In this document: positions 3,061 through 10,231 of the stretch, piece by piece
How the letters are laid out: each line of letters starts with the position of its first letter
Position numbering within the stretch: position 1 is the first letter of the stretch
Assembly: GCA_017652345.1 (NCBI GenBank)
Contig: JAGCBE010000467.1
Location: 1 to 13,312 of the forward strand
Direction: 5' to 3'
DNA length: 13,312 bases
From: Methanobrevibacter sp.
Lineage (GTDB): Archaea > Methanobacteriota > Methanobacteria > Methanobacteriales > Methanobacteriaceae
The notes under the pieces: generated by a model
Told to the model about the DNA's origin: nothing
The model's input: only the letters and a program-made list of their open reading frames with translations
Database searches by the model: none
Translations under genes and position numbers: made by a program

Positions 3061-5982
3061 ATGGTAACAGTAGATGATGCAACTTATGTAAAGATGAAAG
3101 ACACCCTTTACTGAGGGGATGCATGAAAGGCAAGTAGAGCAAAAGCTCAAATAGAAGCCAATTATGATGATGCAAAGTATAGTAGCTTTTTATCAAGTTT
3201 AGATAAATTAGGTAATACTTCTACACCTGCTACTTCTACATCTTCTAATAACTCTTGACCTGCTGATTGATATGCAACAGCAACAGATAGGAACATGGCT
3301 ACAGCTGCAAGTGAGTTTGGCACAAGGGAAACACCAGCTACACCTGCGACACCTAGTGCAAATGAGGATGTGGTTAAAACTGAAACTGAAGTAAAGCAAG
3401 AGTGAGCCTTAAAGCCATTATCACAGGAGTATTATAACCAGACTTCACAAGCTGCACAAGATACTATAGTTAAAAACCTAAACAACTATAAGCAGACTAA
3501 CCCTGAATATTTTACAGATTATGAAAGTTTTAAAAGAAACTTCTCTTATGATAGCAGGGATGATGTGCAAAAAAATACACTTGACACATGGTTTAACTGA
3601 TACCAGCAAAACTTACAGTTGGCCACAACACCAACTAGCGAGTTATATACACAATATCAGGACTGAAATTTATCAGCAGCACAAATTGAGTGACTAAGGG
3701 TCAGCGATCCAACAAAATATGTGGAGTTACAAAACATGATAAACAAAGGTAACATTATTGCTGCATACGATGATGATAAGGGTGCTGATGGCTTTGGTAA
3801 CAGCATACAGGAAATGGCCTACAACATGTTGCAACAAACATTTATGCAGTTTATGAGTTGAGATAGCGATAGCGGTGCAAGTAACATATTTAGGGAGTAT
3901 GAAAACAAAATGGAGTCGCCTGATATGTTAGGCTTAGCTGACCAATGCACAGAGGTGCAAGAGGAAATAGAAAATGTGCAGTCCGACCTAGATGCAATTA
4001 AAAAAAGTGTTGAGGCAGAATATGCAGGAACTGGTGCAAGTAGGGCTAAAATAAATGCCATAATATCTGACAGGAGTTACGATCTACAGCTACAGTTAAG
4101 GACACTTAACTCAGAATATAACAAGTATGCTACACAATATAACAATAGAATGCAGCAATACCAAAACGAGTTTAGCATGCAGTTGCAAGAATACCAAATA
4201 AACCAGCAACAAAGACAGCAACAAATGCAGGAGCTTTGATTTGCTTTAGATTTAATGAGCTTTGAAACACCACAGCAAAAGCAAGATAGGGAGCGAGATT
4301 ACTGGGTTAAGCAGCAGGAGTATGCTAACGGTAATATTAACAGTAAAGACCATGATACTAGGTATAAGGCAGCCTTAAATAGTGTCCAAAATTTGCTTAG
4401 CCAATATGAGTGAATTCCTATGGTTAGAAGTGCAGAGCAAATGGCTGATGACATTTTAAAGGCTATTGATAACTGAAGTAGCTTGGGTGCTGAGTTAAGT
4501 AAGATTAACCAGCAGATACAACAAAAGCCTGAATACAAATACATGTATAACCAAACATACGGTGGTGGTAGCACATCATGAATAGGTAAAACATTTAAGT
4601 TATGAGATACTGAATACATAGAGTATAACGGTGGTATTTATACATCAGACCAGTTTAATAAATTATTTGGTGGGGCTGGTTGATTTATAGGTGCTACAGG
4701 TAATGCAAAGGCCTATGATGTAGTTGATGAAAAAGTATTCTCGCAAGCTCCTGTAGATTATGGTTATTGAACATTATGAACATTCTTAACAGATACAAGA
4801 AACCAGCAATGAAAGAAATGATGACAATGTGGTAAATATGTTAATGACTACCTACAGCATATTGGTATGACATGAGCTGCAAATAGATATTATGATGATG
4901 AGTTATCTACAAAGCTTAACAGTATAAACACAGAGGCTGCAAAGGAGTGAGTAATAGCAGTATTTGACTACAACCATATAAGTAAGTCTACATGAAAAAA
5001 CCATTGACATGTGGGTATTGTTACTAAGGTAACAAATGATGGTATATGGGTAAGGGACAGTAACCATAACTTAAATAACCCTGAAATTATTGAGGACAGG
5101 TTTATTGCAAGGTGAAGTGAGGAGTGGAACAATAACTTAAAAGGTTTCTTTGATCCTAGTCAGCCACCTATTGATAGGACAAGTGGTTCTTCGACTACTG
5201 GAGCATGAACAGCAGTAGATAGGCTAACTCTAACGGCTCTTAAAAACTGACAGATAGTTAACTCACAAGTGCCAGATACTATAAAAAAGTTAGTAGAGGC
5301 TGGGTTTTCTGAGGATGAAATAAACACAGCACTTAACCAAAACATGCAGTATTACTTGCCTGATGACCAAAGGTCAGAGAAAAATAGGATACTTGCAGAC
5401 TTTAACAAGCTAGACACTGTAAAGAATTTCCAGGAGTCAGCTACTCAGTTATTGGCCTTATCTTCTACAATATCTAATGCAAGTGGTGCAGCAGATGTTG
5501 CTACTGTATTCCAGTTTATGAAAACTATGGATCCAAATTCAGTAGTTAGGGAGTGAGAGTTTAAACAAGCCGCTGAAACTGCAGGTTTGTGGGGTGAAAT
5601 TCAGAGCTCACTTAAAAAACTGGAAAATGGTGAAATGTTAACACCTACACAAAGGGAAAACTTCTTCAAAGTAGCATCTGACATATTAAATTCTAAAAAG
5701 CAGACTTATAAAATAGCTTATGATGAGGCAATTAGGCAGATGAAGGCAGCAAGTATACCTGATGTATATTACCCTACTGATTGGGTAGCCGAAATAGACA
5801 GCATCTTAGCTAAAATACAGCCAGGAATGTCCACTCAGACAGTTAGTAGCAGCCAAAACTCTAGCATGTGGCAACCAAGCTGGCTAACTGATATGCCAAC
5901 GACATATACTTCTACAGTAAGTGGCACAACAAAAAATATCGGTTGACACGATCTACCAGCAAATTTTTATCAAGATAACTAA
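3061..5982 (+). CDS. Virion-associated peptidoglycan hydrolase (CHAP domain), 973 aa
   Basis: 973 residues, about 29 TGA codons read as Gly; ATG 3061, TAA 5980. Domain order: helical N-terminus; Thr/Pro/Ser-rich linker (about 53-118, including TPATPATPS); long Gln-rich coiled coil (about 290-395, with MQLQEYQINQQQRQQQ); CHAP-type amidase/endopeptidase domain (about 575-700); helical C-terminus. In the CHAP domain the catalytic Cys is Cys590 (GGQCGKYVNDYL), preceded by several Gly encoded by TGA. His650 lies in GHVGIVTKV after GVIAVFDYN, and the third residue is probably Asp666 or Asn668 in WVRDSNHN. CHAP enzymes cut peptidoglycan stem peptides or the Mur-Ala amide. Here the domain is buried in a very large structural protein, so it likely opens the wall locally during DNA entry, like the hydrolase in T7 internal virion protein gp16. 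Arg is mainly AGG (about 20 to 7), unlike the genes before it. Under the standard code only fragments would be called. Confidence 0.85.
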
Positions 5983-5988
5983 ATACTA

Positions 5989-8571
5989 ATGGCATTTTGA
6001 CAGATTAACACAGGGTTTAAGGCCTGAATTGGCAACTCTCCGTTTGGCACAGGGTTTGGTGGTGGTTTTTCTACATGATCCAATGCACCAACTAGCACAA
6101 ACACAGCCAAAACAAAGCAGGAAAACACATATAACCCTAGATATCCTGGCTTTGATGAGGAAGATTACAAAAGATTAGTGCAAATTGTGCAGTCACAGGG
6201 TGTAACAGGTAGTAAATTTGACCAACTGATGGATGAGGCATACCAATATTACTACCCTCAGGTGCTAAATAAGCATAAATTGGCTGACAGGGGTGAGCAG
6301 ATTAACCAGGCAGTGTATGAAAATGGAGATGCACTGCTAAATGGTGAATGAGATGCTAACGAAAAGTTTAAATTAACAAGCCTAGCACAAAAAGCTAAGG
6401 AAAAATATGGCATCCCTTATGATTACCCTGATGACCAACTAATTAAATCTATAGTAGAGGGGACAGAAAACGGTAACGAGCTGCTATATAACTACATAAA
6501 CAATGGAGATGATGAGCTACTTTATAAAGCAGGTATTTATGACCAAAAGCAAGGTGGTATAAAATCACTTGTTAACCCTGCTAGTGAATGATGAATACTT
6601 GCAGAATGATGATGGAATGCAGCTAACCCTATTTGATGGTGAACTGAAACCATAGATAATGGTGCAAATAAATTTGCAGAGGCAATAATGATTAAATGAA
6701 CTAAGTCAGCTGAAAACCTAAAGCAAAAGCTAGAAAACATGTCACCTGAGGAAATAGAGGCATATAGGAAAGAGTTTAGGAAAGCCGTTGGTGAAAAAAG
6801 AATAGGGACAGCATATACATATTGAGATACTGTAGTTGAAAGGCTTTGGAATGGTATAAAAGGGGAAAAATATTACCCTGAGGATGATGAGGCCTTTTAC
6901 AAGTGGCTTATTGATAAAAAGATGAACTTAGGGCAAAGCTTAATAGGAGCAGATGATATACTAAAGGGAGAGCACAACCCTAATGTTATTAGGTTTTTCG
7001 GTAATATACCAGGTAGTGCAGTTAAAACCTTTACTGCTACAGTTAGAGGTATGACAAACCCTGTAGACACTTTAAAAGGTTTATACAAACTAGCCGCTAC
7101 TGAGGAATGACACCAGGCTTTATTGCAAAGGTATGGTAGCTGGGATGCATTGGCTGAGGCAATGAACAGCGATCCAGTAGGGGTTGCAGATGATGTGCTG
7201 GCAGTTGCTGAGTTGTGAACCAACATAATATGAGGTTGACTAAAAATGACAGGTAAAGTAACAGGAAATGCAAATTTAGTAAACATGGGTGGTAATTTAC
7301 AGTGAAGTATAGGAAGTGCAAATGATGCTTTAGCTCAAAAGACAGTAGGTGGAGCTTATTGATTACTAGATGAGGGTGCAAAATGGGTAGATGGCAAGTC
7401 TTCTACACTGGGGACAGTAGCACAATGAGTAAATAGGTATGCACAGGACACAAGTAGTTTATCTAAATTACTCCAAAATGGTGCGGAAGATTTAAAAGCC
7501 ATTGAGGAGTCAAGCTTTGGTCAGTCTTTAAAAGATGCATATAATGAGGGTGTTAATAAACTGGTATGAATTGATGAGGAAGATAGGCAATTTATAAGGG
7601 AAAATAAAGATTTGGTAAACGAAACCTTAAGTAAGAAAAAGAATGTAGAAACTATTTATGATGATGTTAAAAATAAGTTTGATGAAAAGATCGTGGAAAA
7701 AATTGAAACTGGGGAAGAGTATGAACAACTATACAAAAGCAAAAAAAAGGTAGTAAATACAGAGTGAATAACAAGCGACAAGACCCTACTAAAAAAGCTT
7801 AAGGCCGCATGAGTAACAGTTGATGCTGACTGAAACCTAGTCTTTGATAAAATAAATGACTTTGATGCTACACAACAAAAGGCATTGCAGGATGCATGGG
7901 AAACTTTAAAAACTGTTGAGTGAGAAAAAAAGTTAAATTCAAGGCAGACTTTATGACAAAGGAGAAAAATAGATAATAAGATAAACTGGGAGTGAAAGCC
8001 TGACAAAATGACAACCACAGATTTAGAGGTAGAGCAGCTTATTAAAGATATGAGAAAACCATTAGATGCAAGGGCTAAGGAATATATACCTTGATTAAAG
8101 GAGCTGGATGCTAAATACCAGCCAATGATAGAACAAGTAAGGGAGATTAAGAAAGATTGGTTTAATTCTGATGGAACTATTAAAGACAATGTAAGGAGTA
8201 AGTTAAGAAACTTAACTAAGGCATGAAATGAGGAAAGGCTTGCAAGATTAGAGCAACTTATGCCTTGAATAACAAAAGATTTAAAGGCTTTAGATGTGGC
8301 TCTAACTGTAGAAAAGGCAAGTAAACAGGGTGTTTGACAATATTCAAAAGGTATTATGTGATGAAGTATTCCAGCTGCTTTTGTTAACCCTGCAGCATGA
8401 GTTGCAGGAGCGGTGCTATGGGTGTTGTCTTCTCCTAAGGTTTATGTAAGGTTAATAGAAGCCTATCCTGACATAGCACAAAAGCTAAGTGCTGGTCAAG
8501 AGTTATTGCCAACTGATATGAATAAACTTACAAGTTGGGCATCTAGAATACAAGATGGTATGGAGGAATAG
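5989..8571 (+). CDS. Large internal virion/ejection-type protein, 860 aa
   Basis: 860 residues, about 33 TGA codons read as Gly; ATG 5989, TAG 8569, 6 bp after the CHAP gene. The N-terminus is Gly-rich (FGTGFGGGFSTG), followed by Lys/Glu/Asp-rich helical regions. A middle segment has PGSAVKTFTATVRGMTNP, LYKLAATEEGHQALLQRYG and DPVGVADDVLAVAELG. A hydrophobic Gly/Ala stretch at about 788-814 (around FVNPAAGVAGAVLWVLSS) could insert in a membrane, and it is followed by VRLIEAYPDIAQKL. I saw no cysteine. The size, helical content and membrane-prone end, next to a giant hydrolase, suggest an ejection or internal core protein. A tape-measure role is the alternative, but no tail tube genes are present. 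Function is inferred from context only. It shares the AGG-rich Arg usage of the CHAP gene, so the pair probably has one origin. Confidence 0.65.
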
Positions 8572-9046: not shown

Positions 9047-9928
9047 CTACAAATATTTCTTTAATTGTTCTTCTACATCAGCTAACTTTTTCCTGTTTTT
9101 TTCATTCATGTAGTGTAAAATACCCTTGTAATTGGTGTCATTAGTTTGATGCCACATGGCAGAGTTTAATTCTATTGCATTTAGCAGGTTTGTTCTAAAT
9201 TCATTTAGTCTTTTAACTTCTTCTAATGCATCTTCTGCAACTTTGGTATATATATAACCATTAGTTCCAAATACTGATATCTCTCTTGGGTAATGTAGAA
9301 GGGAATATATGTTGCAATCTAACTTTCAGTTGTTAGTTGTTCTTCCTTTATAGTTATCTTTTACACATACCACTCCATCTATCTTTTTTAAGTTAATAGT
9401 TACAAGGTTTAAGGCATGACCATAAGTTGATGCTCAGAATTCTGTCTCATCTACTATGGCATCTTTAAGGTAATCTAACTGAAACTTAGTATTTCAGTTT
9501 ATATTTGTCATGATATTGTAACCTTTATCAAGAATTTTATCTACTAAACCATTATTTGTGGTGTCTATCTTGTAATAAGCCACCTTTCATAAGTCTGCAT
9601 GGTGTTCATTCCACCAGTCAGCTACTAACTTAACTGCTGCCTGCACTCGCCATCATGAATTTGGGAATCTTCACAGGGAATAGCTCTTTTCATCTATCTC
9701 TTTTATCTCACTTAATGGGAATTCATAGTTAAACAAGTCTGATATAGCTCATATTGCAGAAAATACTGTGCAACTTTTCTTACTCCACTCTTGTTTTTGT
9801 TGGTTATACTCAAATATGATACTATCTTGTTGGTAAAGCTGTGGCAAAGCATCCTCAAAGCCATCACATATAAGATAGTCGGTTTGTTGTCACCCTATTC
9901 ATAGGCAACCGTTCTCTAAATCTGTCAT
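9047..9928 (-). CDS. Papain-like cysteine peptidase
   Basis: 293 residues; ATG 9928, TAG 9047-9049. An in-frame TAA lies just upstream, so the start is fixed. Cys53 sits in KKSCTVFSAIGAISDLF, a helix start like that of papain-type enzymes, with Gln residues six to nine positions before it. His171 is in TYGHALNLVTIN, and Asn192 in VCVKDNYKG stands where papain-like enzymes carry the Asn of their NSWG motif. This Cys-His-Asn order and spacing support a papain-fold peptidase; the Asn context is degenerate, so it could be a related transferase or inactive. The C-terminus (about 225-293) is a charged helical region ending EEQLKKYL. There is no signal peptide. Its ATG overlaps the stop of the NrdD-like gene by one base (TAATG), implying coupled translation. 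Possible roles are capsid or host protein processing. Arg is mostly AGA, unlike the phosphoesterase gene upstream. Confidence 0.6.
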
Positions 9929-10113
9929 TATTTTTGGTTAGGTGGTAAAAACTTTGCAATAAAGTCTGAATTATCTACTTTTTTTTCATCAAAGTATTTT
10001 CTACTATAAAACTCAGACTTTTTTCACATGTTGTAGGCACTTACAGGCCTAAGGTATCACATTACCCTAGTGTAAACTTCACAGGGTGTCCTTTTTGTTT
10101 GATCTGTTGTCAT
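9928..10113 (-). CDS. Stand-alone NrdD-type glycyl radical domain
   Basis: 61 residues; ATG 10113, TAA 9928-9930. The core RTPCEVYTRVMGYLRPVSAY followed by NMGKKSEFYSRKYF matches the C-terminal glycyl radical region of anaerobic ribonucleoside-triphosphate reductase (NrdD), where the Gly of RV-x-GYLRP carries the radical used to make deoxynucleotides without oxygen. That residue, Gly19, is encoded by TGA, as is the Gly of NMGKK. Full NrdD is 600-700 residues, so this is only the radical domain. Short free-standing proteins of this type are annotated in many anaerobes. It might complete or repair a host reductase, as the spare radical domain YfiD does for pyruvate formate-lyase; that role is inference. 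It overlaps the Cys-rich gene upstream by 47 bp in another frame and the peptidase by 1 bp. Confidence 0.85.
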
Positions 10114-10231
10114 GTTTTTTATAATAAGGATTAAATTTACATAGCACCTCAAATATGCAGCTGCGACAAGACTTAATTCGTGCTATTCACTTATCGCATT
10201 TGTCCTTTTCAGTTGACTGTTCGTATTCCAT
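10067..10231 (-). CDS. Small Cys-rich protein, 54 aa
   Basis: ATG 10231, TAG 10067-10069. The start is 5 bp after the stop of the phosphoesterase gene, so translation may be coupled. The protein is basic, with Cys at 12, 22, 25 and 31 (KCDKG, KSCRSCIFEVLCKFNP), a spacing that could bind one zinc or a cluster. I do not recognise the family. The last 47 bp overlap the NrdD-like gene in another frame, which lowers certainty about the C-terminus. Without it there would be an otherwise empty 120-bp gap in a gene-dense cluster, which supports it being real. Confidence 0.5.

What the first reader, a model, noticed from the sequence alone, without database searches (positions are those of the whole stretch)
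9928..10113. Catalytic radical glycine of a free-standing NrdD domain is encoded by the reassigned UGA
The 61-aa protein is only the C-terminal glycyl radical region of anaerobic ribonucleotide reductase. The radical-carrying Gly19 is a TGA codon, so any cell reading UGA as stop would make an inactive 18-residue stub. A spare radical domain on a phage could repair or boost an oxygen-damaged host NrdD, as YfiD does for pyruvate formate-lyase; I know of no established case for phage NrdD of this kind, but cannot check.
Basis: partly seen in the sequence, partly recalled or inferred. Interest (0 to 1): 0.75.

Follow-up and report, generated by a model that had tools for sequence, protein, structure and literature searches.

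The report
Phage-borne radical subunit of split reductase
A virus of bacteria that read UGA as glycine carries only the small radical-bearing piece of the oxygen-sensitive enzyme that makes DNA building blocks, and bacteria of the likely host group make that enzyme in two separate pieces, so the viral gene looks like a swap-in copy of the host's small piece.

Summary
On the minus strand, 9928-10113 encodes a 61-aa protein that matches only the last 31 positions of the anaerobic ribonucleotide reductase (NrdD) profile. Gly19 aligns with the radical glycine and is TGA, but that is ordinary: TGA is 163 of 360 glycine codons in the window and is used at this site in 9 of 36 viral relatives. The gene is under purifying selection and stands without a core in 34 of 35 related viral records. 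The phage protein is a homologue of that small subunit. Best reading: a phage-supplied replacement for the host's exchangeable radical subunit, charged by host NrdG2 and docked on the host core; activity is untested. The nearest phage copies lack the C-terminal cysteine pair of the 15 nearest host copies. My paper searches found no class III enzyme described as split this way.

The parts
9928..10113 (-). 61-aa stand-alone glycyl radical subunit homologous to the C-terminus of NrdD
10057..10059 (-). TGA codon of Gly19, the position that aligns with the NrdD radical glycine
10024..10026 (-). TGA codon of Gly30 (NxGK motif)
10067..10231 (-). 54-aa cysteine-containing ORF upstream, its 3' end overlapping the radical subunit gene by 47 bases; no family match
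   Evidence: similar ORF found in L001, L002, L005, L008, L009, L011
10236..11261 (-). 341-aa calcineurin-like phosphoesterase, upstream neighbour
9047..9928 (-). 293-aa downstream neighbour, no family match; its ATG overlaps the stop codon of the radical subunit gene by one base

Best explanation
The 61-aa protein is a phage-encoded copy of the small, radical-carrying subunit of a naturally split class III ribonucleotide reductase. SHOWN by sequence: bacteria of the likely host group encode NrdD as two genes, a core that stops after the zinc ribbon and a separate small glycyl-radical protein; the phage encodes a homologue of the latter only, as far as the fragments show; the copy and its radical glycine are conserved. 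INFERRED: during infection the host activase NrdG2 puts the radical on Gly19 of the phage subunit, which docks into the host NrdD core in place of the host's own small subunit, makes the thiyl radical on the finger-loop cysteine (SMCCR) and so drives dNTP synthesis for the phage. Because the radical part is a separate, exchangeable protein in these bacteria, a 186-base gene is enough to resupply or take over the part of the enzyme that oxygen destroys.
For: Complementary coverage of one profile: host cores match NRDD about 2-530 of 562 and separate small ORFs about 531-562, both seen in 44 of 48 genomes. In 77 of 77 bacterial loci holding both, core and small ORF are not one open segment; 51 of 77 pairs of segments do not overlap at all; the nearest start codon of the small ORF lies 4 to 319 bases after the core's stop. 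Class-wide sample: 41 cores without C-terminus, 39 with a separate small match and 2 more with a small ORF. Split also in 30 of 30 further Patescibacteria regions. NrdG2 over its cut-off in 15 of 15 host-type genomes, on the same contig within about 3 kb of nrdD in 11, and absent from 21 viral records searched. SMCCR finger loop in 74 of 77 cores, the other three being cut by contig ends. Purifying selection; conserved gene neighbourhood; a viral contig, L024, with both pieces as overlapping ORFs.
Against: No activity, binding or expression data. The host is inferred from the genetic code and sequence similarity only. Viral records may be fragments, so a core elsewhere on the phage is not excluded. 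The tree is poorly resolved (56 of 95 inner branches open). 3 of 16 genomes with in-frame TGA in the class sample have a one-piece NrdD, of other kinds, and one-piece NrdD with a similar C-terminus occurs in other Patescibacteria (L193). The structure model of the 61-aa protein is weak (pLDDT 69.7, pTM 0.34) and matched nothing at E<=0.001.
Confidence: 0.7

Rival explanations
1. Spare part: the protein repairs NrdD that oxygen has cleaved at its radical glycine, as GrcA/YfiD and phage T4 Y06I do for pyruvate formate-lyase. In a split-enzyme host this would mean replacing cleaved small subunits.
For: Precedent in E. coli and T4, and the statement that spare parts for other glycyl radical enzymes are possible (PMC8683613, passages; PMC12338860, passages). 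The radical glycine is conserved.
Against: The host enzyme is already split, so no damage is needed to create a place for the domain. Nothing ties the gene to oxygen.
Confidence: 0.13
2. The phage (or a co-infecting element) encodes its own NrdD core outside the sequenced fragments, and this is simply the small half of a phage enzyme.
For: L024/G023 encodes both halves side by side. Completeness of the records is unknown.
Against: Core found in 1 of 35 viral records, none of the 13 nearest (G001-G013, up to 66 kb); not in the window; no NrdG in 35 viral records.
Confidence: 0.09
3. Decoy or inhibitor: the protein occupies the host core or NrdG2 and shuts down host dNTP synthesis.
For: A free small domain could compete with the host subunit; phage copies differ from host copies in the tail.
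Against: A pure decoy need not keep the radical glycine, which is kept in 36 of 36 viral loci.
Confidence: 0.05
4. A decaying gene fragment with no function.
For: Small size only.
Against: dN/dS about 0.1, conserved length and place in related phages, own ATG.
Confidence: 0.03

Closest known systems
Class III ribonucleotide reductase NrdD, double-cysteine finger-loop lineage
   Same: Same glycyl radical segment (PF13597 positions 532-562); host cores carry SMCCR, the MCCR type described in PMC9669993 section 9 (read).
   Different: Known NrdD, as described in the papers seen, is one polypeptide; here catalytic core and radical segment are separate genes, and the phage has only the latter.
Autonomous glycyl radical cofactors GrcA/YfiD and phage T4 Y06I
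   Same: Small stand-alone glycyl radical protein, one of them phage-borne (PMC8683613, passages).
   Different: They serve pyruvate formate-lyase, a one-piece enzyme, as a repair part; the protein here matches NrdD and its likely host enzyme is natively split.
Split RNRs: class II NrdJa/NrdJb, T4-like Aeh1 NrdA, intron- or intein-split phage nrdD
   Same: RNR chains divided over two genes (PMC9669993 passages; PMC3653736 passages; PMC4520616 listing only).
   Different: Other classes or other split points, or splits by introns, inteins or endonuclease genes; none of the passages I read describes a separate glycyl radical subunit.
ANMV-1 virus AJP62049, 144 aa, annotated anaerobic ribonucleoside triphosphate reductase
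   Same: Deposited viral protein holding only the NrdD C-terminus, profile 519-562.
   Different: Longer N-terminal part; virus of an uncultured archaeon; not discussed as a separate subunit in the record.

Membership tests
Complete class III RNR (NrdD) | Catalytic barrel with finger-loop cysteine | tested here: not met
   Protein covers profile 532-562 only; no core in window
Complete class III RNR (NrdD) | Glycyl radical motif | tested here: met
Separate radical subunit of a split class III RNR | Stand-alone ORF complementary to a core that lacks this segment in the same kind of cell | tested here: met
   the host of this very phage is not known
Separate radical subunit of a split class III RNR | Close homology of phage and host small proteins | tested here: met
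   up to 76% identity over residues 5-55 to host L041; tree
Separate radical subunit of a split class III RNR | Activation by NrdG-type activase and function with the core | not testable with these tools
   NrdG2 present in 15 of 15 host-type genomes
Autonomous glycyl radical cofactor GrcA/YfiD | Similarity to the pyruvate formate-lyase C-terminus | tested here: not met
   NRDD is the only Pfam family at E<=1
Autonomous glycyl radical cofactor GrcA/YfiD | Rescues an oxygen-cleaved enzyme | not testable with these tools
   needs biochemistry

The most novel reading that the evidence does not exclude
Class III ribonucleotide reductase exists in several bacterial groups as a true two-subunit enzyme with an exchangeable radical subunit, sometimes fused to a glutaredoxin and sometimes unlinked from the core gene; phages of such bacteria, including those with UGA as glycine, repeatedly capture only that subunit and take over the host enzyme with a gene of under 200 bases, using a version without the host's C-terminal cysteine pair that may escape host redox or regulatory control.
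Probability: 0.35. Interest if true: 0.85.

Novelty: new variant of a known kind. Interest (0 to 1): 0.66.

Why it matters
If true, the host enzyme is modular and the phage takes only the module that carries the radical and that oxygen destroys. That makes two questions testable: whether the glycyl radical of a ribonucleotide reductase can work in trans from a separate small protein, and whether exchangeable radical parts exist for glycyl radical enzymes other than pyruvate formate-lyase, which PMC8683613 leaves as speculation (passages). It would also give a function to many very small proteins whose only match is the end of NrdD.

Tried and rejected
UGA at the radical codon as a special switch: rejected, ordinary codon use. 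Host core and small ORF joined by frameshift or splicing: unlikely, since 51 of 77 segment pairs do not overlap and relative frames vary (36, 24 and 17 of 77), and since core and small gene lie far apart or on different contigs in some genomes with another NrdD kind (G240, G192, G449, G461, G440, G430). Same-frame pairs first looked fused because that tool reads through stops; the six such pairs all have a stop between them. Structure: model too weak for a fold match. Isolated phages: P0001 matched 2 of 50,697 records; a Negativicutes-type small protein matched 14, mostly unannotated faecal records, and 29 plasmids, of which the one I opened holds a full-length nrdD gene. A zinc-ribbon role for the 54-aa neighbour: considered, no evidence. 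Literature: searches for split, truncated or separate glycyl radical parts of NrdD, and for ribonucleotide reductase with Absconditabacteria, Patescibacteria or CPR gave no description of a split class III enzyme of this kind; [quoted passage not shown] Papers were seen as passages (PMC9531940, PMC3322345, PMC3653736, PMC3019208, PMC10746230, PMC12338860, PMC8683613, PMC12386605; PMC11452946 had no matching passage) except section 9 of PMC9669993, read in full.

Full report
What is in the window. The feature lies on the minus strand, 10113 down to 9928. Read with UGA as glycine (code 25) it is a 61-aa protein with its own ATG and a TAA stop; Gly19 and Gly30 are both TGA. Against Pfam it matches only NRDD, residues 9-41 to profile positions 532-562 of 562, E 5.8e-8, over the cut-off. 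NCBIfam NrdD models match at the same end, and two solved NrdD chains align their RIVGYL loop with RVMGYL here, weakly (E about 0.04). PHROGs gives only weak matches, to an NrdD family and to phrog_4132 of unknown function. That this glycine carries the radical rests on the alignment and on established knowledge of NrdD, not on an assay. There is no NrdD core in the window (best tblastn E 0.67). No whole genome is held for the window.

TGA at the radical glycine. In the ORFs counted, 163 of 360 glycine codons are TGA, and the 15 ORFs that end inside the window stop at TAA or TAG. At Gly19, 36 of 36 viral loci and 80 of 80 bacterial loci encode glycine; the viral ones use TGA in 9 and GGN in 27. 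A cell reading UGA as stop would indeed end the protein there, but 14 of the 16 ORFs counted contain at least one in-frame TGA, so the position is not singled out.

A conserved stand-alone phage gene. A length-restricted search gave 472 proteins and the viral collection 36 loci in 35 records. The profile found the radical domain in 34 of the 35 records and a core in one, G023; the copy in G032 is known from tblastn only. G023 (L024) has a 575-aa core and a 77-aa radical protein in overlapping frames. Among the window and 14 viral relatives dN<dS in 103 of 105 pairs, median dN/dS 0.098 over the 54 pairs with finite dS. In L001-L011 the phosphoesterase is found just upstream in 10 of 11 (L010 starts too close to tell) and the 293-aa protein downstream in 9 of 11. 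No NrdG in 35 viral records, no NrdG2 in 21, no class I/II RNR in 13.

The host enzyme is split. The same query in GTDB genomes found 127 relatives, of which the best 80 loci were kept: candidate division SR1/Absconditabacteria (including the complete genome RAAC1_SR1_1), Gracilibacteria, Peregrinibacteria, Alphaproteobacteria and a few others. In 48 genomes searched with the profile, 44 show both a core match ending at about 530 and a separate small match at about 531-562; the other four gave one match each, and their loci L058, L063, L064 and L089 show both ORFs. In the 77 of 80 loci that hold core and small ORF, none has them in one open segment; 51 of 77 segment pairs do not overlap; the nearest start codon is ATG in 65 of 77; the median gap is 44 bases. 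L087, L106 and L112 have no core nearby and were left out. To test whether this depends on how the loci were found, I searched 286 Patescibacteria genomes: 76 match, some in one piece and many in two. Of 40 regions chosen from these, 30 are split, with the break between the zinc ribbon (CPxCD) and the radical loop in all 30; five regions hold one-piece genes, two hold cores whose small gene is elsewhere, and three hold such distant small genes. A sample of 117 genomes from the class of RAAC1_SR1_1 gave 45 over the cut-off: 41 cores without C-terminus (three of them contig-end pieces), 39 with a separate small match and two with a small ORF that the profile had missed. I checked the reading frames of 18 of these 41, including all six whose two matches share a frame. 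The four contiguous ones have C-termini that by eye belong to other NrdD kinds. Sixteen of the 45 have in-frame TGA, and 13 of these are split.

Partners. NrdG2 is over its cut-off in 15 of 15 SR1/Gracilibacteria-type genomes and lies within about 3 kb of the split nrdD in 11; NrdG proper stays below its cut-off. In a Peregrinibacteria locus (L084) the order is core (605 aa), small subunit with C-terminal glutaredoxin domain (155 aa), radical SAM protein (238 aa); L100 has the same fusion. The cores carry SMCCR in 74 of 77 loci, the other three being cut short. For the MCCR type the authors of PMC9669993 infer that formate or thioredoxin could be the reductant (section 9). Class I/II RNR was found in 7 of 15 of these genomes, so class III is the only RNR seen in the other eight, which are mostly incomplete assemblies by their titles.

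Relation of phage and host copies. On a tree of 117 rows and 54 columns the window lies with L002, L006 and L001; a larger, weakly supported group adds host copies L041, L043 and L045. Other viral copies fall near Alphaproteobacteria (L016), Gracilibacteria (L019) or Peregrinibacteria (L015). The phage label needs at least 11 changes, but well supported branches force only 2, and 56 of 95 inner branches are unresolved. This suggests repeated capture but does not prove number or direction. One clear difference: the 15 nearest host copies (L037-L051) all end in a tail with a C-x-C type pair, while the window and the 14 nearest phage copies have no cysteine there. Over all 80 bacterial loci 44 have two or more tail cysteines, and 6 of 36 viral ones, so the contrast holds for this clade only.

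How general. In the class of a Selenomonadaceae genome (100 genomes, match list cut), I opened five: four have a core of another NrdD kind without C-terminus and a radical protein (open segments of 100-137 aa) on a different contig, and G078 has two such small proteins and one of the present kind. In two Patescibacteria genomes (G240, G192) the small gene is about 31 kb away on the other strand or on another contig. A radical subunit that acts in trans is hard to avoid there, though no function was tested.

Mechanism. Best supported: host NrdG2 charges the phage subunit, which docks on the host core and feeds its thiyl radical. Repair after oxygen damage would be a special case of the same exchange. 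An inhibitor role fits poorly with a fully conserved radical loop. Precedents: T4 Y06I and GrcA for pyruvate formate-lyase (PMC8683613, PMC12338860, passages), split class II RNR (PMC9669993, passages) and phage nrdD interrupted by introns or inteins (PMC3653736, passages). Code-25 phages of Absconditabacteria and Gracilibacteria are described in PMC10746230, whose main text has no ribonucleotide reductase term. I found no paper describing a class III RNR with a separate radical subunit or a phage with that piece alone, within an open-access library.

Verdict. Observation confirmed, interpretation partly supported. New variant of a known kind, interest 0.66.

Noticed in passing
window 10067-10231, minus strand: 54-aa cysteine-containing ORF overlapping the start of the radical subunit gene; a similar ORF sits at the same place in six related phage loci; no family match.
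   Followed up: partly
L084:9959-10426, L100:9998-10447: Peregrinibacteria small radical subunits fused to a C-terminal glutaredoxin domain.
   Followed up: partly
small ORFs of L037-L051 against L001-L014 and the window: Host copies end in a C-x-C type tail (15 of 15); the nearest phage copies have no cysteine there (0 of 14 and window).
   Followed up: partly
L197, L199, L201, L203, L205, L206: A second kind of stand-alone NrdD radical protein (TGYLVGT motif) on contigs other than the core in genomes of the class of a Selenomonadaceae genome.
   Followed up: partly
L209 (Eggerthella phage EL753P1, record 3741-7169): Annotated nrdD ends before the radical loop; the loop lies about 500 bases downstream and its motif is broken between two reading frames.
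   Followed up: no
G005: L009 and L005: One 59 kb viral record holds two different copies of the radical domain about 43 kb apart.
   Followed up: no
L087/L207 in a Selenomonadaceae genome: A lone radical domain of the present kind whose tail resembles those of viral loci L017 and L018; perhaps a phage contig binned with the genome.
   Followed up: no
L106 and L112: Second, core-less copies of the small domain on other contigs of the Patescibacteria genomes that also gave L061 and L107; possibly prophages.
   Followed up: no
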